Assembly (NCBI RefSeq): GCF_009727055.1
Contig: NC_052353.1
Span: forward strand, 64,008,716-64,072,715
DNA: 64,000 nucleotides
DNA from: Benincasa hispida
Lineage: Eukaryota; Streptophyta; Magnoliopsida; Cucurbitales; Cucurbitaceae
Reading direction: 5' to 3'
Shown here piece after piece: positions 9,023 to 52,471 of the stretch (positions within the stretch are counted from its first letter, which is position 1; every line of letters begins with the position of its first letter). Under the pieces are notes generated by a model. That model was given only the letters and a program-made list of their open reading frames with translations, was not told the DNA's origin and ran no database searches. The position numbers and the translations under genes are program-made.

Positions 9023-11143
9023 TGTAAGGCCTCTCATCCTGTAATTTTCTTATAAATGTTAGGAAAATGATGATTGAGGTAGAATTCGAAACCTCAAGAT
9101 TAAGTTTGATGGAAGGTTAAGAGATGAATTTGAAAATTAGAAAGAATCGAACCGTCGTTTTATTCATTAAGAAGAATAAAATAAGGATTCGAGGAATAAT
9201 TTGAGGATAATGAACCTATTTAAGCATGTAAAGTAAATTCAATGATGAATTAGGCGTGCTCGGATAAGTCAACAGTCAAAGGCAAAATAAAAAAGTCAAA
9301 GTCAACAAAAAATCAACTTTTGATATATGGTCAATTTTAGAAATTTCAAGGGTTTAATGGTGAATTGGAGGTATTGTGGGCTTGTAGGACTCGATTTGGG
9401 CTGGAAATTGAAGGAAAAGTGGATGGAAATTGGGTGGACGAGAGTAAGGAAGGAAAAAAAAATGAAAGGAATGAAATTTGGACAAATTGGGTTGTCTTCC
9501 TCAAATTTTCTGATTGGGTGCCCAAAAGATGAAAGGAGAGTTATCCAAATACGCGAAAAACCCAAAGCATCAGGCAATAAGCAAGAATTCGGAGAGTTGG
9601 GGTGTTCAGTCGGTTTAAAAAGGAAAAGAAGAAGTTTTCGAATTGGGGCCTTTCTTGTAAAGGAAAATTGGAATAAAATTAGTTCTTACTGTAGATTAAT
9701 TTTAAGGTCTTGAGTTAATTTTAGAGCAATTAAAGGACCATATTGCAAAGGAAACTCTACCTTGGATCAAATTAGGGATTTGGGAAAAGTTTAAGTGAAA
9801 TTGGTTATACTTGAAGATTAATTTTCAAATAATTGGATTATGGTCATGTGGAGGATAACTAGAGGATTATCAATATAATTTTAGGATAAACGAGAGATGG
9901 AGAAATTGAAATTATGAGGAGGAGCCGGTTAACAGTGAGTGGTTTATTTTCGAATGATTTGATATAGAAAGTAATTATATATGATAGTGCGCTATGATTT
10001 AAGAAATGTGAGGGCATGGTCTGTTTTACGTGACTAATATTTCAAAAATGTTTAAATCATGATTTTTAAACTCTCGATGGTTTTATGATCTTGATTTATC
10101 AAAATGTAGTTTGGAATCGAAGTATACATATTATATGGTTTTTATGAAAACCTCTTGATCGTGGAATCAAGGTTGTTGAATGGTTGTAGAAATGGTTTCG
10201 AACTACTGATTCTTGTACCTGAGAGATAGTTATTTTTTCGTGCTACTTGAATGTGTTTCAGTAGCACTGCTCAGACGATCAGGGGGTTACCGGGGTCAGA
10301 TGTGGCCAGAGTATATTGGGAATTCCTCTGCTGGGGTCAAATGTGGCCAGAGTATACCGGGGAGTCCAAAGTAACCTGGGCCTATGGTGTGTATCTATGC
10401 TTAGTCTTGAGGCAGCTTTGCGTACATGTATGACCTTGTGATTTGGTTTACACCGCGGGGTGCATTCTTTGTCTAGAGTAACCCACCGTTGTACATGAGT
10501 ATTTAGGTACAGAGTTGGTGTGGTTTTCTGATGACGTCTAAATGTTTTATAATGTGATTTATGTGAATTATGATCATGCCATTGTCTAAGTAATACGAGT
10601 TTGAGCTATTAATGAATCTTATATATGTTTCCAACGATTTATAGAATGTTTTTGATAATTAGTTGATGTTTGGAAAGAGAAAGTTTATGTTTATACTAAA
10701 TTACCATTCACTGGGTTTTAGCTCATGCTTTCCATGTTTTATGTTTTTCCCCACCTAGGTAGCGATAAGTTCTTAGTGCCTGCTGAGTCGTCAAACGCCA
10801 CTAGTGTTGTTAAACATCTGTTGTATTGTTTGTGCATGTATTTGAGAGTATTCCAAAATAGCTAAAACTTGTTAGTTACATGTCATGAGAGGTTTTGTTC
10901 AAAATAATCCTTACGATTGTTCTGTAAATCTTTTTAAATAGTATTGTGATTTAAACTGAATCAAATTCCTAAACTCTGTCAATGAACATAGATTATTTTT
11001 AAAAATGGGTTTGGAAGTCTGAGTTTGATCTTGAGTATAGAATATGTTAAGAGTTGGGACGTTAGATGTCATAGAGAGAAGTGATGTTTAACGTCTTCAC
11101 GCTTCGTTCTAGTTTAGAAGGGAAATTTGGAACGGGGGTGACA
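9023..11143 (+). mobile_element. Solo LTR of a Ty3/gypsy element
   Basis: The unit starts TGTAAGGCC, ends GGGTGACA, and is flanked by TCTAG (9018-9022) and TCTAA (11144-11148), a 5-bp target duplication with one mismatch. The phrase near 10690-10760 ('cactgggttttagctcatgc' then a 'ccacctaggtagcgataag' motif) resembles the 3' part of the gypsy LTR at 49656-52471 ('ccccaagtagcggt'). No internal domain adjoins it, so it is a recombined solo LTR of 2121 bp. Two 24-bp near-identical copies (10292-10315, 10333-10356) form a short tandem. Frames inside it, including one of 128 codons at 9327, are not considered genes. Confidence 0.75.
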
Positions 11144-13867: not shown

Positions 13868-16602
13868 ATGGCGGACGTGCAGATGGCCGATGCTGAGACC
13901 TTCGCCTTCCAGGCCGAGATTAACCAGCTTCTCAGTTTGATTATCAATACTTTCTACAGCAACAAGGAGATTTTCCTTCGAGAGCTTATCAGCAATTCCT
14001 CTGACGTGAGTTTTCTTTACCTTCATTCTCTGTTGTTGTATTTTTTTTTAATTGAATTTCTACGTCGTTGTTGAGATCGAGATTGTGTTGTTTTGTTGAC
14101 GGATGATTGATTGTTTTGGTTTTGATAATCTATAGGCATTGGACAAAATTCGATATGAAAGTTTGACAGACAAGAGCAAACTCGATGCTCAACCAGAGCT
14201 GTTCATCAGGATTGTTCCGGATAAGGTTAACAAAACTCTCTCCATAATCGATAGTGGAGTCGGAATGACTAAAGCAGGTAAGAGAAAGGTCGAGATATTT
14301 CTTGAAGTCTGGACGCAAGAATTTCGGAAACTTGAGCTTAGTTGTTTCGTTGTTGTTTCTTGAATGCAGATTTGGTGAATAACTTGGGAACAATCGCAAG
14401 GTCGGGGACCAAAGAATTCATGGAGGCATTGCAGGCCGGTGCCGATGTGAGCATGATTGGTCAATTTGGTGTAGGGTTCTATTCGGCTTACCTTGTGGCC
14501 GAGAAGGTGATTGTGACCACGAAGCATAATGATGACGAACAATACGTATGGGAATCACAGGCCGGTGGTTCTTTCACCGTCACAAGAGATGTAAATGGAG
14601 AGCAACTCGGAAGGGGTACAAAGATCACACTCTTCCTTAAGGAGGATCAGGTAACTGAATTTTATAATATAGTTCGTTTTGTGACTTGTTTATAGGATTA
14701 GAAGGGGGAAGATTGAATTTCGTAAATAAAATGGGGAAAGTGGTATGGAATGTGTTCTTTGTTAGGGTTCCTTAGTATTAGCCGAAATGACGCGGGAAAA
14801 GAATTTGCAATGGACCATAGTCCTGTGTCGCTAATATGAGTCTAACAAATAGTTTTTGCTATATTTGCAATTATTTAAGAATGTTGCTATGTAGTTAATT
14901 GTTAGTATGAGAATTGCTATCCATTGTAATTACCCACTCCGGTATTCTTCCTTTAATAAAACATTATCTCTCCCCTTTTTGCTTTCTTCATTTGTTGATT
15001 CATAACATTTTTCTTTGAATGTGACACTAATTGAATGTGTTAATTATTCAGTTGGAGTATTTGGAAGAGAGGAGGATCAAGGACCTTGTGAAGAAGCACT
15101 CTGAATTCATCAGCTATCCCATCTATCTCTGGACCGAGAAAACTACCGAGAAGGAGATTAGCGACGATGAAGATGATGAACCAAAGAAGGAAAAAGAAGG
15201 AGATGTTGAAGAGGTGGACGAGGAAAAGGAAACCAAATCAAAGAAGAAGAAGATCAAAGAAGTTTCTCACGAATGGCAACTCATTAACAAGCAGAAACCA
15301 ATTTGGCTGCGCAAGCCTGAAGAAATTACCAAAGAAGAATATGCGTCATTCTACAAGAGCTTGACAAATGATTGGGAGGATCATCTTGCAGTGAAACACT
15401 TCTCTGTAGAGGGACAACTTGAGTTCAAGGCAATTCTCTTTGTCCCCAAGAGAGCTCCATTTGATCTTTTCGACAGCCGTAAGAAAATGAACAATATAAA
15501 GCTCTATGTCAGAAGAGTGTTCATCATGGACAATTGCGAGGAGCTGATCCCCGAGTACCTTGGATTCGTGAAAGGTGTGGTCGATTCCGATGATCTGCCA
15601 CTAAATATCTCACGTGAGATGCTGCAGCAGAACAAGATTCTGAAAGTGATAAGGAAGAATTTGGTGAAGAAGTGCATTGAGATGTTCAATGAGATCGCGG
15701 AGAACAAAGAGGATTACAACAAGTTTTATGAAGCCTTCTCTAAGAATTTGAAGTTGGGTATCCACGAAGACAGCCAAAACAGAGCCAAATTGGCTGACTT
15801 GCTTCGATACTACTCGACCAAGAGCGGAGATGAAATGACAAGCTTGAAGGACTATGTCACCAGGATGAAAGAGGGGCAGAAAGATATTTACTACATCACT
15901 GGTGAGAGCAAAAAAGCAGTAGAGAATTCTCCTTTCTTGGAGCGCCTGAAGAAGAAAGGCTACGAGGTGCTTTTCATGGTCGATGCAATCGATGAATATG
16001 CCGTTGGTCAGTTGAAAGAATACGAGGGCAAGAAGCTAGTCTCTGCCACCAAGGAAGGACTTAAACTTGATGATGAAACTGAGGAAGAGAAGAAGAAAAA
16101 GGAAGAAAAGAAGAAGTCATTTGAGAATCTTTGCAAGACCATCAAGGACATCCTTGGCGACAAAGTAGAGAAGGTGGTTGTCTCTGACAGGATTGTGGAC
16201 TCTCCTTGCTGCTTGGTGACCGGCGAATATGGCTGGACGGCAAACATGGAGAGAATCATGAAGGCTCAAGCTCTCAGAGACAACAGCATGGGCGCTTACA
16301 TGTCAAGCAAGAAGACAATGGAGATCAACCCAGATAATGGAATCATGGAGGAACTAAGAAAAAGAGCAGAGGCAGACAAAAATGACAAATCCGTCAAGGA
16401 TTTAGTCATGCTTCTCTTCGAAACTGCTCTATTGACTTCGGGTTTCAGCCTTGATGATCCTAACACGTTTGCTGCAAGAATCCACAGAATGTTGAAACTT
16501 GGTCTTAGCATCGATGAGGAGGAAAATGAAGGAGATGATGCAGACATGCCTGCTTTAGAGGAAGATGTTGCTGAAGAGAGCAAAATGGAGGAGGTAGACT
16601 AA
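13868..16602 (+). CDS. HSP90: Cytosolic HSP90 chaperone, four exons
   Basis: ATP-dependent chaperone of the cytosol and nucleus that matures client kinases, receptors and NLR proteins. Exons 13868-14005, 14136-14277, 14370-14650 and 15052-16602 all have GT/AG introns (130, 92 and 401 bp). They join in frame to 703 residues, the usual size for plant cytosolic HSP90. The N-terminal GHKL ATPase domain (about 1-215) has catalytic Glu39 and Asn43 in RELISNSS, Asp85 in DSGVGM, and the lid motif [14 protein letters not shown] lysine/glutamate-rich linker lies at about 220-256. The middle domain contains the ATP-contacting Arg375 in [11 protein letters not shown]. The dimerisation domain ends in MEEVD, the docking site for TPR co-chaperones, which excludes plastid, mitochondrial and ER forms. 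The start is the first in-frame ATG after the TATA box. The gene looks intact. Confidence 0.97.
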
Positions 16603-30886: not shown

Positions 30887-32934
30887 TGTTGGGATTAGTG
30901 TCCTAATTCTCTTGGAGTATCGTAGTTTGTAGTATATACACATTGTTATGAATAAAATAAGAGTTATTTTATCTGGCATTTACTCATATCCAATAAACAA
31001 AGCTCCATGGTTATTGTATGTAAACTTAAGCATGTATATGAGATATACAAGTGGATCATGCCTTAAGTGATAACCTAAATAGGTCTGTAATAAAAGGATT
31101 AAAGAGGGATACCTGATCTTGGTGACACTATGGATACGACCCACTTTGTAAAGGTTTGCAGTTGTAAAATACTACATATGGTAGATCCTGACTATTCATG
31201 TGGAGACATGCGAGCGGGGGTGTCTTATACAAAGAGTTTGTATAAGATCGGACCACGAGATGACTAGTGTCTTTATATAACACCGTTGATACTAGAGACT
31301 TACATCTCACCTACATGACCATAGTTGACACGACCTCAATCCTGAGTGTTTTAGAAACTTCTGCATTTGAGGGTGGTCCTTTGATTAGTATGGGTGAGAG
31401 TTTCCAGATTGCCAACTCAACATGCTTACCTTTTTAGGGACTTGTCTGATTTGAGAGCTGGAAACTCAGTTACACAAGATGGAATTCACTCCTTCTTCAA
31501 AGCAGGGGTAAGTAGATAGATTGCTCCCTTAAGGGCTGATTTCGGGGCTTGAACATAGTGGCCACAACTTCTCTTTGGAAGAGAGAACTTAGTCATAGTA
31601 GGACTATGACTCATGTTCATTAGAGGGATCAGTGGTACTTAAGGAGTTAGATGTAACTACAGGGGCATAACGGTTATTAACCCAGTTGTACTTACGAGCG
31701 ATCTGTGAAGAGTTATCGCACTGTTGATTGGTTGATATAGACACATAATATATCTGTGTCGGTCTTTAGAAGAGTATCTAGCAATTAACGGATGGTGGAT
31801 CCTGTGACTAAAGAGTTTAGTCAGCTATTCATGTACCGTTGGAGCTTCGAGTTACAGTTCCATAAGGTCCCCTTAGTAGCTCAATGGATTCAAGTTGAGA
31901 ATCAGTTCTTGATGTTGATTTGAAATGTTCAAATTAACAAGAGGAAATTCGATTATATATGATATGATCGATATGATGTATAAGATACATCAAGTGGAGG
32001 ATTAATGTAAATGTGATTTACATTAAGTACCATGAAATAGATAAAGAGCTATGGTTTATATGTTTCATGAGATGAAATATTAAAACTATAGGTTATACAT
32101 ATACTATGGTAAGTTAGTTATCATATATATATATAATAATATTAATTATTGGATAATTATCCTTTTTCTCTAATAACCAATTGAGTGAGAGGTTATTGGT
32201 GGTTTCATGGTAACCATGAGATAAAAGGAAAAATATTTTCCTAAATTTAGTAGTTGATGATTGAGATTTTCCATTCTTGAAAATTACTCACAGTTGGCTG
32301 TCAAGTGAATGAGATTTACTATATGATGGCTGAAGAGAGACTAGAGATCGTGGAGTCACTACACGATAGTTCACTCAACTGGCCTTTAGCTAAATGATCG
32401 CAGAGCTTTTGCTAAATGATCACAGTGCATTTGTTAAACGATTGGGCATCATCTATACGATAGACCTTGTCATCTCCCACTTGCTCAATCGTTTACATGA
32501 TTATTCTTCCTTCTGTCTCGCCCTCTAACAAAGTCCACATAGAGCCCACACTTCTAAATTCTCACACCGAGAATATCAAGGTAGCCATTGTGGTGGTGTC
32601 GTACTCAACTCGACATAGTCGAGGTTTTTGGAGGTCGTTCACTATGTTCGTGGTTGTTGTGATTGTGCTGTATTACGGTCGAAGTGATCGAGCATTCGTG
32701 AGTTGTTGTCTTGTTGTTTGAATGAGCGTTCGTGATCAAGGGAGATTGAAGATGAGTCTTCAAAGGTATGTTTGTTCCTTCCCTTGATCGTATTAAAAAG
32801 CATGCTGTAATTTCGTTTTGTGCATAGCCTATATGTTTCCGTTTCTTGATTGTAATTGAGTATGTTTATGTACGAATGAAATTTGAAACAATCATTCCAC
32901 TCCTCATGGAAATCCTCATGTCTGATTTCCTTCA
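30887..32934 (+). mobile_element. Solo LTR 'a' inside copia-1 reverse transcriptase/RNase H
   Basis: 2048 bp, starting TGTTGGGATT and ending TTTCCTTCA. It is flanked by AAACT (30882-30886) and AAGCT (32935-32939), a target duplication with one mismatch. It sits in the opposite orientation to its host. Removing it restores the conserved pol order (PYAS-x-AGS ... NRPGICYAV). It contains TATA-rich and ACGATCG-like motifs. The short frames inside are not genes. Confidence 0.9.
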
Positions 32935-33909
32935 AAGCTACCCGCAATTGAGGCATAGGGAATGCGTCTCATATCCTCAACTTCTTGAGGTGTTTAGGAC
33001 ATTGTTCCTTAATGTCAATAAGGTACCTTACATCATTCCCAATAAGTAGGATATCATCCATATGAAATACTAGAAAAGCTACTTTATCGATGATGATTTT
33101 CTTGTAGATACAAGGTTCATCAACACTTTGATCAAAACCACAAGATTTTGGCTATATCAAATCTAATGTTCCAAGATCTGAACACATGTTTAAACCCATA
33201 ATTGGATCGATTCAACTTGCAAACTTTTTGCTCCTAACCTTAGACTATGAACCCCTAGGGCTGAGACATAAAGATATTCTCCTCAAGATTTTCATTTAGA
33301 AAATTAGTCTTGACATCCATTTTCCATATCTCATAGTTATAATTTGTGACTATGGACAAGAGAATTCTTATAGACTTAAGCATATCAATAGGGAAAAAAG
33401 TTTTCTGATAGTCAACCCCTTTCCTTTGGGTATAACTCTTTGCTAAAGGTCTAGCTTTAAAGATATGTACCTTTCCAGCTATATCTCTCTTTCTTTTGTA
33501 GATTTATTTACACCTCATGGGTTTGACCCCTTCAGGTAAATCTACAAGCTCCCATACTAAATTGGAGTGCATGGACTCCATTTCAAGGTCCATGGCTTTG
33601 ACCCATTGGTCCTTGTCCACATCATTTATTGTCTGTTTATAGGACAATAGATCCTTAACCCCATCATTTGGTATGACAAACTGAGTTTCAGTTAAACCCA
33701 AGTAATAGTCAGGTTGTATCACAACCCTCCCACTGTGTCAAGGCACTCTCAACAATTGAGAAGGACGAGACTGACCTGAAGTGCTGGCTCCTTCATTAAC
33801 TCTTGATGAAAGACCAGCTTCATCAATAACCCTTGCTAATTCTTCAATAGCTTCACTTAATACTACTTGACTACGTGGTTTATGATCTCTCATGTGGTAT
33901 TCCTCTAAA
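32935..33909 (-). pseudogene. Copia-1 reverse transcriptase
   Basis: The minus-strand reading gives HMRDHKPRSQVVLSEA, then DVDKDQWVKAMDLEMESM, LVWELVDLPEGVKPMRCK, KARPLAKSYTQRKGVDY, and HMDDILLIGNDV, in which the polymerase box is MDD. The segment jumps from DVRYLIDIK to EQCPK, so about 100 codons are deleted. Stops and frameshifts are frequent. It matches the Ty1/copia gag-pol type common in melon and cucumber, from memory. Confidence 0.88.
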
Positions 33910-34458
33910 TGAAGGAAATCGACACTTGAGATTTCCATGAGCAGCGAAACAAGACTATTCCAAATTACAATCATGAATCAATAAATCATTAACAGTCGAC
34001 TTCAAAACAAGCGGTTATACAATTTATAGTGAAATTACAGCATGAACAATAAATGTACAAAGGGAAAAACTGTACTAACGTATGCAGAAACGTCTCCACA
34101 CTCCGATGCGTGACTCTGATTGAACAACTGCAACACCGCACGGACATTGCACGAACTCTTCGCTCTCGTCCTCAACGATCTCCTCGCTCACGAACTCTTC
34201 CGCAACAACACGAACACCGTGCTCGTCCTCAACGACACGAACGGCCTCCACAGCACCACGAACAACCTCCAGAAAACCTCGACGGTGCAGAGTTGAGTCT
34301 AACACCATCAACAAGGCGACCTTGGTATTCTCGGTGTGAGAATCCAGAGGGTGGGCTCTGTTCAGACTTGGTGTGAGGTAGACGAACGAGGGAAACAACG
34401 ATCGTGTACACGACTGGGCAAGTGGGAGAAGTCGGAGACCTATCGTATAGATCGATGC

Positions 34459-34496
34459 CTGTCTCTTATACACATCTAGATGTGTATAAGAGACAG
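34459..34496. other. Tn5 mosaic-end pair, probable mate-pair adapter residue
   Basis: Positions 34459-34477 read CTGTCTCTTATACACATCT, and 34478-34496 are its exact reverse complement. This is the 19-bp hyperactive Tn5 mosaic end as used in Nextera kits. Two head-to-head copies form the Nextera mate-pair circularisation junction. The flanking LTR sequence is collinear with other copies, so it is residue in the assembly and not a genomic feature. Confidence 0.95.
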
Positions 34497-35826
34497 GCTA
34501 TATGATCATTTAGTAAAATCTGCATGATCGTTTAGCTAGCACCTGCACGATCGTTTAGCTCGCCCAATCGTCATTTAGTAAATCTGTATTTACTTGACGA
34601 CTTCCATGAGTTTCTTTTCGCCGGAGAGAAAACTAAAATTCTTTTCAAACTTTTGTAAAACCTCTTTTTTCAAAATAGGAAACCACTTTCCTTTATACTC
34701 ACGGTTACCATGACCCAATAACTACCCACCACATTTGGTTATTTAAAAGAAAAAATATTAATTATCCAATAATTAATATCATTATAAACATAAATGATAA
34801 CCAACTTATCATACTATATTTATAACCTATAGTTTTAATATTTCATCTCATGAAACTATAAACCATAGTTCTTTTTCTATTCAATGGTACTTAATGTAAA
34901 TCTCATTTACATCAATCCTCCACTAGATGTATCTTATACATCATACCGATTATATCATATATAATCAAAATACCTCTTGTCAATTTGAACATTTCAAATC
35001 AACACCAAGAACTAATCCTCAACGAAATCCAAGCTACCAAGGGGACCTCATGGATCTATAGATCCGAAATTTCAATGGCTCGTGAATAACTGACTATACT
35101 CTTTAGTCACGGGATCCACCATCCGTTAACTGCCAGGCACTCAATTAAAGAATGACAACTGAACTCTCCTCACTACAAATATATTATGTGTCCATCTTAA
35201 CCAATCAGCAGTGTGACAACCCTTCACAGATCGCTTGTAAGTACAGCTAGGCCAATAACCGTTATGCCCTTGTAGTTACATCTATCTTCTAAAGTACCAC
35301 TGATCCCTCTAATGAACATAGTCATAGTCCTACTATGACTGAGTCTTCTCTTTCAAAGAGAAGTTGTGGCCACTATGTTCAAGCTGCGGAATTAGTCCTT
35401 AAGGGAGCAATCTCTCTACTTATCCCTATTTCGGGAAAGGAGTGAATTTTATATTGTGAATTGAGTTCCCAACTTCCAGATTAGACAAGTCACCAAAAAG
35501 GTAGGCATGCTGAGTTGAGACTCTAGCCACTCTCACCCATACTAATCAAAGGACTGCCCTCAAAGGCAGGAGTTCACAAAACACTCAGGATTGAGGTCGT
35601 GTCAACTATGGTTGTTTAGGTGAGATGCAAGTCTCTAGTATCAACGACGTTATATACAGAGTCTAGTCATCTCGTGGTCCAGTTCTTATACAAACTCTTT
35701 GTATAGAACACCCCCGCTCCACATCTCCACACGAATGGTCAGGATCAACCATCTGTAGTAGTTTACAACACTTGCAAACCTCTACAAAGCGGATCGTATC
35801 CATAGTGTCATCAGGATCAGGTATCC

Positions 35827-37639
35827 TGTAAGCGCATAAAATGATGATGCGATGATATGCGATACTACTTTTAAATGTATGCATTATTAATGAAATGCTT
35901 GTAGTATGCTATACGTTGTCACAAGTTTCCTTGCATTGAAACCAAGTATAATTCCACCGCAAGTTTCTTAGAGTGATCCGAGGTCGAACATAAGGATTGC
36001 GTAGTTAATGCGTTATGTTCGTGATATATGCGACCGGGTGTTTTTCAATTAATAAAAAGCATGTGTGTACAAGTATCTAAAATTGCGGTCAAGTAAAATA
36101 TGCGGTAAAGTAAAGTTGCGGTAATAAAATAAAGTGTGATAAAAGTAAACCTAAGCTATTATGATACAAGATACAGGATACTGATACATGATACTGAGTT
36201 TGAGACTGGCTGTGAAGATTATATAAAGAGTCGTGGTATGTGGTGGCAAGACTTTATGTATGGAACAAAAATAGAAAGGATAATTAATATAAACATCGCA
36301 AGTTCATTAATTGCGTTAAAGATTTAACTACGGTTCCACTTTCCTTTGGTGTACACCTTTCGGTGATCGGTCGTGTTCCCACATCTCTGTGGTGAAACAA
36401 GGATGAATGTAATGAACGCATGGTTGCTTCCATCTCTGGAAGTACTTCTCGCTTTAGTTAAGGCATTCTTCAAACGTTCTCTCGACAGGCAGAATGACAT
36501 CTTCACTTTTGCTATCACAGGTGAAGATGCCGTCTAGTATGCTTTAGCTAAACATATTTATTTCTTTAGCACATATTAATTTACTTGTTTAATTCACTCT
36601 AATTACCAAGGGATTAAGAAAACATCATGGAGAAAACGATTAATGGAGGAACGGAAATAGACAAAAAGATGGAGATGAAAATGATCATGACATTCAATAC
36701 TTATATTTAGCATCTGATACATGGTGTGAATGATAGGGATTAAGAAGATGAATACAATTGATGATAAGAGATAGAAACAAATACAGAAGAGTGCCAACAT
36801 CTTGACACAGATCTAAACGGTGAATTTGCTTGTCTGCAAATGGAGTGAATGGAAGGAAGAGCTTCCCTTTCAGGCTTGCTCGTCCGGTAGGAGTGACCTT
36901 GGTACAAAGCTTCAACGGCAGGGATAGAAAGGATTTACCCAGAGACTCACCTCTCGGTCTTGTCTCTTAAATCTTCCCGGATCTTCTTCGATCAGGCTCT
37001 TCAGACCAGTCTCTCTCTCAATATACAAATACCAAAATATGCCCGTATCAAGTATATTTTCTCATAGAATTTCAGAGCTATTTATAGGCTCAGCTTTGAC
37101 TCTCTGTAGTGTGGACCCCACTTTATTGTTATGGAAATTCCAAAAATGGTGGAGTGAATATTCCTTCTGTTACGCGATTAATCCCGCTAGAAATGCACAA
37201 CGGTCAGCTGTACACGTGTCAGGATCCTCCGCAATTGTTTCACTCTTTTGCATCTTCGATCGTGTGCCCGCATGCGGTGTTGTTTTTTATTACCACATGC
37301 GGTTGAAGTTGCGTTAATCGCTTAGCTCTTGATCGATTGTCGCATACACCGTCATTGCGTTGATCGTCTACTTATTTCTGAATGATTGACGCAATGTGAC
37401 GTAGATGCGTTGTTCAGATTACCTTGAGCCATGAACGTATGTGGTGACTTGATTTCCTATAAAACAGACTTGAAATATTCTTTTCTACCATTGCGATGGT
37501 GTCAGTGGGTGTATTGACGACAAATTATAATTCTTGTATTTCTTAGCTAATTTCTCCACAATTGACGCAACTTTCCTTTCTTTTGACCGCAATATCTAAA
37601 TAAGGTAGTATAAATAACTTGTATTTCTACAAGTTATCA
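35827..37639 (-). mobile_element. Gypsy-like solo LTR, copy B
   Basis: 1813 bp with TG...CA ends. The perfect 5-bp target duplication TATCC lies at 35822-35826 and 37640-37644. Deleting it restores the copia-type LTR sequence 'ggtatcccaccttaatcc'. The right end carries the hairpin AACTTGTA-tttc-TACAAGTT. Conserved blocks include 'gaaaccaagtataattccac' near 35937 and the GATCGATTGTCGCAT region near 37330. No coding capacity. Confidence 0.93.
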
Positions 37640-46201: not shown

Positions 46202-46727
46202 TGTGAACCCCTAATCCTAATTTCTCTACTTGAGTATGTTCCCTACTGAGACTAGTGTGGTGAGTAGGTTGATATGGAAACTAGTGTGTGACGGTAGAGA
46301 AAAGGATGAAAAATTAGAAGAAAAGTGTGTATTTGGAAGCTTAACTTTTGGGGAAAAACTTGAAAAATTTGGCTAAGTATAAACCTATTTGCGTTGGATG
46401 CGTTTGATGATGGATGCGTTGGATGTGATGGATGCGTTGGAAGAGTGGTATGCGTCCATGCGGCTGAAGAAAGGAAAGTTGAAGTGATGCATTGAAAGGT
46501 TGGATGGCACAAGGGTAGGCGAGGACNGGAAGAGTGGTATGCGTCCATGCGGCTGAAGAAAGGAAAGTTGAAGTGATGCATTGAAAGGTTGGATGGCACA
46601 AGGGTAGGCGAGGACGCGGGCAAGGCATGCGTTGGAAGGGTGGCATGCGTCGATGCACAGCGCCCAGCCAAGCGCCCATGCATCGAGTGCCTCTGCCATG
46701 CGTCCAACCCATGCGTTGAGCGCCCAT
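46202..46727 (+). mobile_element. Shortened 5' LTR of the gypsy element, with assembly gap
   Basis: It matches the first part of the 3' LTR (from 49656). An N at 46527 separates two identical 88-bp stretches (46439-46526 and 46528-46615), which are single in the 3' LTR. After 46727 the sequence jumps straight to reverse transcriptase, losing about 2.2 kb of LTR plus gag and protease. Confidence 0.85.
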
Positions 46728-47741
46728 GGTAAACAATAGTAAACAATTCTTAGATGTGTTCCTTGGAAAGTTACCAGGCTTACCACCTGATAGGGAAATA
46801 GAGTTTACTATTGATTTAGTCCCAAGTATAGCACCTATATCCCAGGCACCATATAGAATGGCACCAACGGAACTAAAGAAGTTAAAAGTTCAGTTACAGA
46901 AACTTGTAGATAAGGGGTACATTAGACCCAGTGTGTCGCCTTGGGGAGTGCTAGTCTTATTTGTTAAGAAGAAAGACGGTACTCTTAGATTATGCATACA
47001 CAAGGTGACAATTAAAAATAAGTACCCATTGCCTTGTATAGATGATCTCTTCGATCAGTTAAAGGGAGCTACAGTGTTCTCTAAGATAGATTTAAGATCA
47101 CGTTATCACCAGTTGAAGGTGAAATACACAGATGTTCCAAAGACTGCATTCAGAACTAGGTATGGACATTATGAGTTCCTAGTAATGCCGTTTGGATTGA
47201 CAAATGCTCCTGCGGTATTTATGGATTTGATGAATAGGATATTTCACCTTTATCTGGATCATTTTATGATAGTTTTCATAGACGATATACTAGTATATTC
47301 TAGTAGTGCAGAGAAGCACAAAGAACACTTGAGGACGGTGTTGCAGATGCTAAGGGAAAAGAAGTTATATGCCAAATTTAGTAAGTGTGATTTTTGGTTA
47401 AACCAAGTCGTACTCCTTGGGCATATAGTTTCAGCTGATGAAGTTACCATTGATTCCCAAAAGATAGAAGCGATAGTTAACTAGGAATGACCCCTGAATC
47501 TAACAGAAGTACACAGTTTTCTGGGCTTAGCAGGTTATTATAGGATATTCGTGGAGGGCTTTTCTAAGATAGCTCTACCATTAACAAACCTGACCAGAAA
47601 AGATGTGAAGTTTGAGTGGTCACCAGAATGCGAGCATAGTTTTCAAGTGTTGAAACAGAGGTTAGGCACTAGTATTAACTCTATCTACACCAGGTAAAGA
47701 GTTTGAAGTCTACTGTGATGCATCCCGACAAGGATTAGGAT
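46726..47741 (+). pseudogene. Gypsy reverse transcriptase
   Basis: RNA-dependent DNA polymerase domain of Ty3/gypsy pol, open for 252 codons to TAG at 47482. Conserved blocks: [77 protein letters not shown], and the catalytic FIDDILVYS, which is intact. A deletion of about seven codons removed the usual DYR-LN block between LRLCI and KVTIKN. A stop replaces a Trp codon just after EAIVN, and a frameshift near 47690 separates it from RNase H, so the polyprotein is broken. Confidence 0.93.
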
Positions 47742-49655: not shown

Positions 49656-52471
49656 TGTGAACCCTGAATCCTAATTTCTCTACTTGAGTATGTTCCCTAC
49701 TGTGATTAGTGTGGTGAGTAAGTTGATGTGGAAACTAGTGTGTGATGGTAGAGAAAAAGGTGGAAAAATTAGAAGAAAAGTGAGTATTTGGAACTTGACA
49801 TTTGGGGAAAAACTTGGAAAATTTGGCTAAGTATAAACCTATATGCGTTGGATGCGTTGGATGCGATGGATGCATTGGAAGGGTGGTATGCGTCCATGCG
49901 GCTGAAGAAAGGAAAGTTGAAGTGATGCGTTGGAAGGTTGGATGGCACAAGGGTAGGCGAGGACGCGGGCAAGGCATACGTTGGAAGGATGGCATGCGTC
50001 GATGCACACCAGCCAAGCGCCCATGGTCGAGCGCCTCTACCAAGCACTTAGCCCAGCCTCTGCCAAGCGCCCAGCCCATGCGTCAAGCGCCCATGCCAAG
50101 CTTCTCTGCCAAGCACTCAGCCTATGCATCGAGCGCCCTGCCGAGCGGCCATGCGTCGAGTGCCCTGCCAATCGCCCATGCGGTCGAGCGAGCCTTGCGA
50201 GTGATGGCCAGCGCCTATGCCACACGCCCATGCGTCGGTGACCAGCGCCTATGCCAAGCGCCATGCATCGATGCCAAACGAGCCTTGCGGTGATGCCGAG
50301 TGAGCTGTGTGTCGAGGACGAGCGACCATCCTATGCGTTGGTGGTGGCTGGCTCTTGCGATGGTTAGGACATGTGGTGACTAAGTGAGTTGGCTTTCTAT
50401 GCGTTGATTATAGATTATGCGTTAATGGTACTATGCATTGAACATCCAAGAGTTTGTGGATGCATATGAAGGATGAGATCACATAGAGAACGTCATCAAA
50501 CATGTGTCTTCTTGAGAGGAAACCTTAAGCCTTAAGGATTTGAGGTGGTTGCATAAGAGGACATGCAAAATTTAGTCCCATGCGTTGGCTATATGGGAGA
50601 AGGACACTTAGATTTCGTTGATCAAAAGTTATGTTAGTAGTATGAGGAAGAAACACTTGGACATGCAGCCAAGTAGGAGGTGTCGATCTTGGAGAATGTT
50701 TGGACGCCTATAAATAGGGCCAAAGACGTCTTTTTCAGATTACAATTCAAAAAGACATTAAAAAGAGTGCGAAAGCTGAGTAAACATTGCGTTGAGAGCA
50801 AAATCCATGCGTTGATCATAGAACTTCAAAGAGGACGTAGTGGACAGTGAAGTCTAGAAAACAACATCAACTTGGGACGAGTAGTTCTCCCAATATACTC
50901 GTGCGTTTGGAGTGATTCCAAAGCCACCTGAAAGCTCTGAAAGTCTGGTTTTCAGGGAAGGGCTGCCGGATAAAAAGCTCTAAAGGATTGGGCTGAAAAC
51001 TGAGAAGAAGACAGAAGGGTCAGGCTGTTAGATAAGCTTGGACCAGTCTTGGAGATTTTGTGATTCCGGCCAAACCACGAGAAGTTCTAAGCTCATATTT
51101 TATGATAAGCTTCCTGAGATATTTTATAATATTTTTGTAGAAGTAAGTATCTCAAAATAAGGATTAGAACTATGAGTAATCTGAGTTGAAAGTCGAATCT
51201 GGATTCTAGGGGTGGAAAAGGGAGCCCGAGGTAAACAAGGAACTTCTAGAGTGAAAATTTCCTAAGAGATCGAGGTGAGTGACTAAAAAATTTGACTAAA
51301 ATGTTTGACTAAAATATTTACAATGTTTTAAAGAAGATTATTCTCATGCCAGCTAGTTTTACAAAGTGATTTCCAAGCAAACCATGAGTTATGTTTTAAA
51401 CGCATGCATGTGTGGGAAGTTTGTTGAAAAGTTATTTATATGTGTTAAATATACCCAGCATCCGTTAGTATCTTTAAAGCCATGTTTTTATATGTGTTAT
51501 ACTTTACATGCTTTAAAGAGAAAGTCATTTATGACTAGTTTTACTTAAAACGCGATACCAAAGGACATTTGAGAAGGTATCCGCCTAACTAGATACCGAA
51601 GGATATTTGAGAAGGTATCTAACCAACTTGGTACTGAAGGAAATTTGAAAAGGTACCAGACCAACTTAATACCAAAGGACATTTGAGAAGGTATCCTAGC
51701 AGCTCGATACTGAAGGACATTTTAGAAGGTATCTGAACAGAAGTACCTAAGGTATGACGGTACTTAGTATGGCCACGTGCACGTAGGTAGTTAGAGTTAG
51801 AGATTGAGCAAAAGGGTTCTATCTTGACTAGCAGTTGGTGTTGGGATTATTTTTAACCACAGCAGGGTTATTCTCAACTGAGAAACGGTTTTACTGTTTT
51901 ATGATTAAAACAACTTTATATGCTTTATGCTTGGAAAATGTTTATACTGCAGTACAAGGTACTGTAGAAGCTTATATTTCATTTTAAACTCTTTATTGAG
52001 ATTTTTGCATGAGAATCAATTATCTTTCTTAAGTCACTCACTGGGCTAGCAAGCTTACCCCATTTTCAAATGTTTTCCTTTCCCCCAAGTAGCGGTCAAA
52101 TCCTCAGGAGATAGCTCTGCATCTGCTCGGCCACTAAAGGATAAAGATATTGTAACCCGTCGGTTTAGGTGGTTACTGTAAATATTGTACACATGTTTCC
52201 GTTGTTCATATAGGGACTAGGGTTTTTGGGCTTTGGGACTTATGAATCTAGTGTTGTAATGACTCTAAACATGTTTTGTTTCTCAATTAATAAATTTTTG
52301 GCCTAAAGACATTCCGCTGTATATGAGTTATATATTGGTATCAGAGTTATTTCGCAAGAGTTATTAAACAGCAAGTGTCGACCAAAGGGTTGATAACTGC
52401 TGCAGGGTTGATAACTGCTGTAATCACGCCCTTTCCTAAGCTAAGAGGGTTGTCTGAGGCTGGGTGTGACA
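49656..52471 (+). mobile_element. 3' LTR of the gypsy element (2816 bp)
   Basis: It runs from TGTGAACCCTG to GGGTGTGACA. From 49845 to about 50330 it is packed with short GC-rich units such as ATGCGTTGG and GCGCCCATGCGTCGAGCGC, which produce long spurious frames on both strands. A five-copy 38-bp array lies at 51554-51734. The promoter is probably near 50705 ('gcctataaataggg'). Confidence 0.9.
51554..51734 (+). repeat. 38-bp tandem array, five copies
   Basis: Units start at about 51554, 51592, 51630, 51668 and 51706 and follow 'gataccaaaggacatttgag' then 'aaggtatc'. Each unit opens with GATACC/GGTACT and closes with GGTATC/GGTACC, so each is an imperfect palindrome. It lies within the gypsy 3' LTR downstream of the presumed promoter. 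Confidence 0.85.

What the first reader, a model, noticed from the sequence alone, without database searches (positions are those of the whole stretch)
34459..34496. Nextera mate-pair junction adapter left in the assembly
A 19-bp Tn5 mosaic end is followed at once by its exact reverse complement. Natural genomes do not carry this hyperactive-Tn5 sequence as a head-to-head pair, and it equals the circularisation junction of Nextera mate-pair libraries. It sits in repetitive LTR DNA, where gap-filling with untrimmed mate-pair reads is likely. Sequence around it should be treated with caution.
Basis: partly seen in the sequence, partly recalled or inferred. Interest (0 to 1): 0.75.

Follow-up and report, generated by a model that had tools for sequence, protein, structure and literature searches.

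The report
Sequencing adapter left in plant assembly
The 38 bases are a laboratory adapter from a mate-pair sequencing library that was built into a published plant genome draft, here and in thousands of other places, so they are an assembly error and not biology.

Summary
Confirmed: window 34459-34496 is an exact 38-bp palindrome, the 19-bp Tn5 mosaic end followed at once by its reverse complement. The window has one copy, but its assembly (912,946,352 bases) holds 9991; the pattern read backwards has 0. By size it is most likely the Benincasa hispida B227 draft (912.95 Mb), made with five mate-pair libraries. Of 51 copies examined, 0 have a 9-bp target duplication and 21 have exact direct repeats of at least 30 bp across the adapter (3 of 410 control positions): faulty joins, not transposition. 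The window copy itself shows no such repeat. Five relatives of its repeat, adapter-free at this point, read on with CCAATC where the window breaks into adapter; three have 116-131 bp between the flanks. How the joins arose is inferred. Low interest as biology, modest as quality control.

The parts
34459..34477 (+). 19-bp Tn5 mosaic end, first half of the junction adapter
   Evidence: exact match
34478..34496 (-). 19-bp Tn5 mosaic end, reverse-complement half
   Evidence: exact match; 38-bp palindrome
34300..34458 (.). left flank: LTR-like repeat, breaks off after ...GATGC
   Evidence: similar to L140:2256-2412, L156:1072-1210, L150:1515-1659 and window 32446-32599; in five relatives that are adapter-free at this point the next bases are CCAATC
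34497..34640 (.). right flank of the same LTR-like repeat, with a 23-bp tandem array at 34502-34560
   Evidence: similar to L140:2529-2672, L156:804-943, L149:1728-1861; tandem array
32385..32508 (-). adapter-free inverted relative of the same stretch inside the window
   Evidence: inverted repeats I4, I5, I9; alignments; letters

Best explanation
It is a mate-pair (Nextera-type) circularisation junction adapter that stayed in the reads and was assembled into the chromosome sequence. In such libraries both ends of a DNA fragment carry the 19-bp adaptor, and circularisation joins them into this 38-bp palindrome (established). Shown here: 9991 exact copies in one assembly, and in a sample of 51 of them no target duplication and, in 21, the same sequence on both sides of the adapter. 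Inferred for the window site from relatives: native tandem-array sequence is missing where the adapter stands. Inferred mechanism: contig ends that border an unresolved stretch were extended by untrimmed junction reads into the adapter. Because the adapter is its own reverse complement, a left end and a right end that both stop in it overlap by 38 bp, and a gap-closing step accepted that as a join. If the two ends had already overlapped in native sequence X, the result is X-adapter-X; if they had not met, the bases between are lost. In the window the second case is likelier.
For: Exact 38-mer at 34459-34496. 9991 exact copies in the own assembly, backward control 0. NextClip describes 19 + 19 = 38 junction bases. 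Probable source draft made with 2-kb and 8-kb mate-pair libraries, ALLPATHS-LG and PBJelly. Of 51 sites (50 on C1 plus the window): 9-bp target duplication 0; exact direct repeat of at least 30 bp across the adapter 21, against 3 of 410 control positions (0 of 198 in a second control draw). L145 has four adapters at an exact 167-bp period. L150 has a 98-bp LTR-like piece between two adapters; it corresponds to window 34349-34448 but sits where window order has 34780-34919. End-trimmed adapters of 36, 37 and 34 bp in L133, L143, L151. Relatives adapter-free at the window's point: L140, L156, L149 with 116, 119 and 131 bp between the flanks, and the arm 32380-32460 and L150, whose distance was not measured. 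No match in 20,395 E. coli records or 50,697 phage records.
Against: The window copy itself has no direct repeat across the adapter (longest shared word 8 bp), so its join is inferred from relatives at about 80-88% identity whose tandem arrays vary in length. One of these, L149, has an adapter of its own 22 bp to the left of the point compared. 26 of 51 sites have no direct repeat of 10 bp or more. The sample is the first copies listed on C1, not random. One of 158 copies in the first 131 loci does have an exact 9-bp repeat on both sides. Of 7 viral-contig copies only 3 could be tested and 0 have a repeat of 30 bp. The adapter-overlap step is inferred; no reads were seen. The assembly is identified by its size only, and 1791 contigs is not the 1812 I would expect from 2197 scaffolds of which 397 were placed on 12 chromosomes.
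Confidence: 0.97

Rival explanations
1. The same artefact (a sub-case of the best explanation), but from a library in which this 38-bp ring adapter was ligated to sheared DNA and not placed by Tn5 tagmentation.
For: PMC7357533 gives exactly this 38-mer as a ring adapter ligated to ultrasound-sheared DNA. The main text of the wax gourd paper does not contain the word Nextera.
Against: The paper says the libraries followed the Illumina standard protocol; that this means the Nextera mate-pair kit is recalled and not shown.
Confidence: 0.2
2. A natural mobile element or Tn5-type insertion that carries mosaic-end-like termini head to head and has multiplied in this plant.
For: High copy number (9991) and perfect palindrome.
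Against: 0 of 51 sites have a 9-bp target duplication. In 163,891 bases of fetched stretches, a 14-mer scan found only three incomplete copies, all trimmed at an end. Flank comparison of 26 distinct sites found native similarity between different stretches only within the LTR-like family. The mosaic end is an engineered chimera of outside and inside ends (PMC3347997). Identical 38-mers occur in unrelated bacterial assemblies.
Confidence: 0.01
3. The adapter marks a true chimeric join at mate-pair distance: the two flanks come from places 2 or 8 kb apart.
For: A mate-pair junction read does join distant ends; L150 shows a misplaced piece between two adapters.
Against: At the window site both flanks match the same LTR-like repeat in the same order and orientation, 116-131 bp apart in L140, L156 and L149; in 21 of 51 sites the two flanks share at least 30 bp directly. 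In a repeat family a distant partner from another copy cannot be excluded.
Confidence: 0.12

Closest known systems
Nextera mate-pair junction adaptor (NextClip, PMC3928519; passages seen)
   Same: two 19-bp adaptors, one forward and one reverse complement, 38 bp in all
   Different: here it is in a finished assembly and not in reads
38-bp biotin ring adapter ligated to sheared DNA (PMC7357533; passages seen)
   Same: identical 38 letters
   Different: placed by ligase on sonicated ends, not by tagmentation
Sequencing-adapter contamination of public assemblies (Moeller et al. 2024, PMC11536531; abstract, outline and one passage seen)
   Same: adapter sequence retained in published assemblies
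   Different: that work concerns microbial databases and, by a section heading, adapters at contig extremities; the word Nextera does not occur in its main text. Here the adapter is internal, in a plant chromosome-scale assembly

Membership tests
Nextera-type mate-pair junction adapter | 19-bp mosaic end followed immediately by its reverse complement | tested here: met
Nextera-type mate-pair junction adapter | many copies in the same assembly, in flanks that are not one repeated element | tested here: met
   9991 copies; flanks of 26 distinct sites compared all against all
Nextera-type mate-pair junction adapter | source project used mate-pair libraries | tested here: met
   provided the assembly is B227 (identified by size)
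Nextera-type mate-pair junction adapter | placed by tagmentation and not by ligation | not testable with these tools
   needs the raw reads;
Natural Tn5/IS50-type insertion | 9-bp target duplication (length recalled) | tested here: not met
   0 of 51 own sites; 1 of 158 copies in the first 131 loci, which include 4 own ones
Natural Tn5/IS50-type insertion | natural outside or inside ends | tested here: not met
   the sequence is the mosaic end and differs from the outside end printed in PMC3347997; the inside end was known to me from memory only

The most novel reading that the evidence does not exclude
A published chromosome-level plant reference has about ten thousand joins bridged by a palindromic mate-pair adapter, many with local duplication, loss or misplacement of native bases, so that the adapter can serve as a ready-made map of the draft's faulty joins; gene models that cross them would carry an adapter-derived peptide.
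Probability: 0.7. Interest if true: 0.3.

Novelty: not a real feature. Interest (0 to 1): 0.15.

Why it matters
The 38 bp must not be read as a biological palindrome, a Tn5 relic or a regulatory element. One exact copy per about 91 kb (9991 in 912.9 Mb) means that repeat counts, small indels and perhaps gene models in this draft may be disturbed at those places, and a screen for the 38-mer finds the places at once. One frame of the adapter is open (VSYTHLDVYKRQ; seen in the window frame 34075-34497), so contaminated gene predictions would be recognisable. A search for that peptide found 0 papers, and a search for Benincasa hispida together with adapter contamination found 1, by its listing a chloroplast study of Cornus.

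Tried and rejected
Natural transposon or amplified element: rejected (0 of 51 target duplications; copies in unrelated bacterial assemblies). Chance: rejected. Single local accident: rejected (9991 copies). Exact number of bases lost at the window site: not decided, since relatives carry tandem arrays of different length. Identifying the plant from the HSP90 protein: the search returned many plants and did not name the species; the size of the assembly suggested it. Count of single 19-bp mosaic ends and of all relatives of the window site in the whole assembly: not obtained, because the genome search did not complete.

Full report
Observation. Window 34459-34496 is CTGTCTCTTATACACATCT followed with no base between by its exact reverse complement. 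It is a perfect palindrome. With up to 3 mismatches no other half-site lies in the 64 kb, and shuffles expect 0.01.

Whole assembly. The window is G000:C5:64008716-64072715 of an assembly of 912,946,352 bases in 1791 contigs. The 38-mer occurs 9991 times; the same letters read backwards occur 0 times. The size equals the 912.95 Mb given for the Benincasa hispida B227 draft in a table of PMC9905507 (passages seen). The B227 paper, PMC6856369 (passages seen), describes paired-end libraries, five mate-pair libraries of 2 and 8 kb on HiSeq 2000, ALLPATHS-LG contigs, scaffolding by mate pairs and PBJelly gap filling. The identification is by size and is not proved: 2197 scaffolds with 397 placed on 12 chromosomes would leave 1812 records, not 1791.

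What the sequence is. [quoted passage not shown] PMC3347997 (passages seen) describes the mosaic end as a chimera of outside and inside ends optimised for use in vitro, and prints oligonucleotides with mosaic and outside ends. PMC7357533 (passages seen) prints exactly this 38-mer, as a ring adapter ligated to ultrasound-sheared DNA. The 38 bp therefore fix the class (circularisation junction) but not the kit.

Flanks in the same assembly. I fetched 40 stretches of C1 that hold 50 of the 9991 copies. These are the first ones listed and not a random sample. With the window that makes 51 sites. None has an exact 9-bp target duplication. The longest exact direct repeat between the 150-base flanks reaches 30 bp in 21 of 51, against 3 of 410 control positions in the same stretches, and 10 bp in 25 of 51 against 48 of 410. 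The 21 sites lie in 17 stretches, since some stretches hold more than one copy. The window site is not among them: its longest shared word is 8 bp. The first 24 stretches and the window's surroundings contain no N (the other 20 stretches were not checked for N). In L145 four adapters stand at an exact period of 167. In L150 a 98-base piece between two adapters matches window 34349-34448, while its outer neighbours match window up to 34779 and from 34920, so the piece is out of place. A 14-mer scan of 163,891 bases found three further adapters that lack 1, 2 and 4 outer bases (L143, L133, L151).

The window site. Both flanks match one LTR-like repeat. In all five relatives seen (L140, L156, L149, L150, and the inverted arm at 32380-32460) the bases after the counterpart of ...ATGC are CCAATC, where the window has adapter. 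Between the flanks L140, L156 and L149 have 116, 119 and 131 bp of tandem-array sequence, against the 38-bp adapter here. These stretches were fetched because they hold an adapter elsewhere; in L149 that adapter is only 22 bp away from the point compared. The array differs in length among copies, so the number of bases lost in the window is not known. A broken reverse-transcriptase fragment lies nearby (RVT_2, E = 1.1e-18, 33255-33503); that RVT_2 means Copia type is recalled.

Other collections. It is in 7 stretches of viral contigs, in 5 of 72,556 plasmid records, in 0 of 50,697 phage records and in 0 of 20,395 E. coli complete-genome records (in the near mode). In the bacterial loci 132 of 147 copies had flanks long enough to test; 19 of 132 have direct repeats of at least 30 bp across the adapter, against 1 of 540 controls, and 60 of 147 have an N within 500 bases. 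Of 7 viral copies 3 could be tested and none has a repeat of 30 bp. Over the first 131 loci 1 of 158 copies has an exact 9-bp repeat on both sides. So the same kind of faulty join recurs in genomes without these plant repeats.

Mechanism. Shown: the adapter present at 9991 places; in the sample, flanks that are often the same native sequence twice; a misplaced filler in one case. Inferred: contig ends extended into the adapter by untrimmed reads and then joined through the self-complementary 38 bp. This would explain duplications of variable length (ends had overlapped) and losses (ends had not met) with one step. The program that did it is not known; the passages of the paper that I saw name no gap filler other than PBJelly.

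Known or new. Adapter contamination of public assemblies is known (PMC11536531, abstract, outline and one passage seen). I found no paper reporting it for this assembly in one search, which is a thin basis.

Noticed in passing
window 46527: The only N of the window stands between two exact 88-bp copies (46439-46526 and 46528-46615): two contig ends that overlap but were not merged. It lies just upstream of a reverse-transcriptase frame (RVT_1, 46720-47484), and 49877-50015 is 94% identical to 46528-46666.
   Followed up: yes
window 31000-35900: Two LTR-like stretches face each other as inverted repeats (roughly 31250-32630 and 34270-35680) around a broken RVT_2 reverse-transcriptase fragment on the minus strand: nested, rearranged or mis-assembled.
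   Followed up: partly
L145:2001-2539: Four adapters with an exact 129-bp unit between them (period 167), a tandem array made of adapter and one short piece.
   Followed up: partly
L150:2001-2174: A 98-bp LTR-like piece between two adapters sits in the place of about 140 bp of other LTR-like sequence.
   Followed up: yes
L025:3552-3716: A record titled chromosome (Allomuricauda MAG, CP051244.1) holds two adapters that start 127 bp apart.
   Followed up: no
window 15031-16602: A 523-aa stop-to-stop frame of a plant HSP90 (96% identity over 99% to oak HSP83 proteins of 703 aa), so a host gene exon lies in the window.
   Followed up: no
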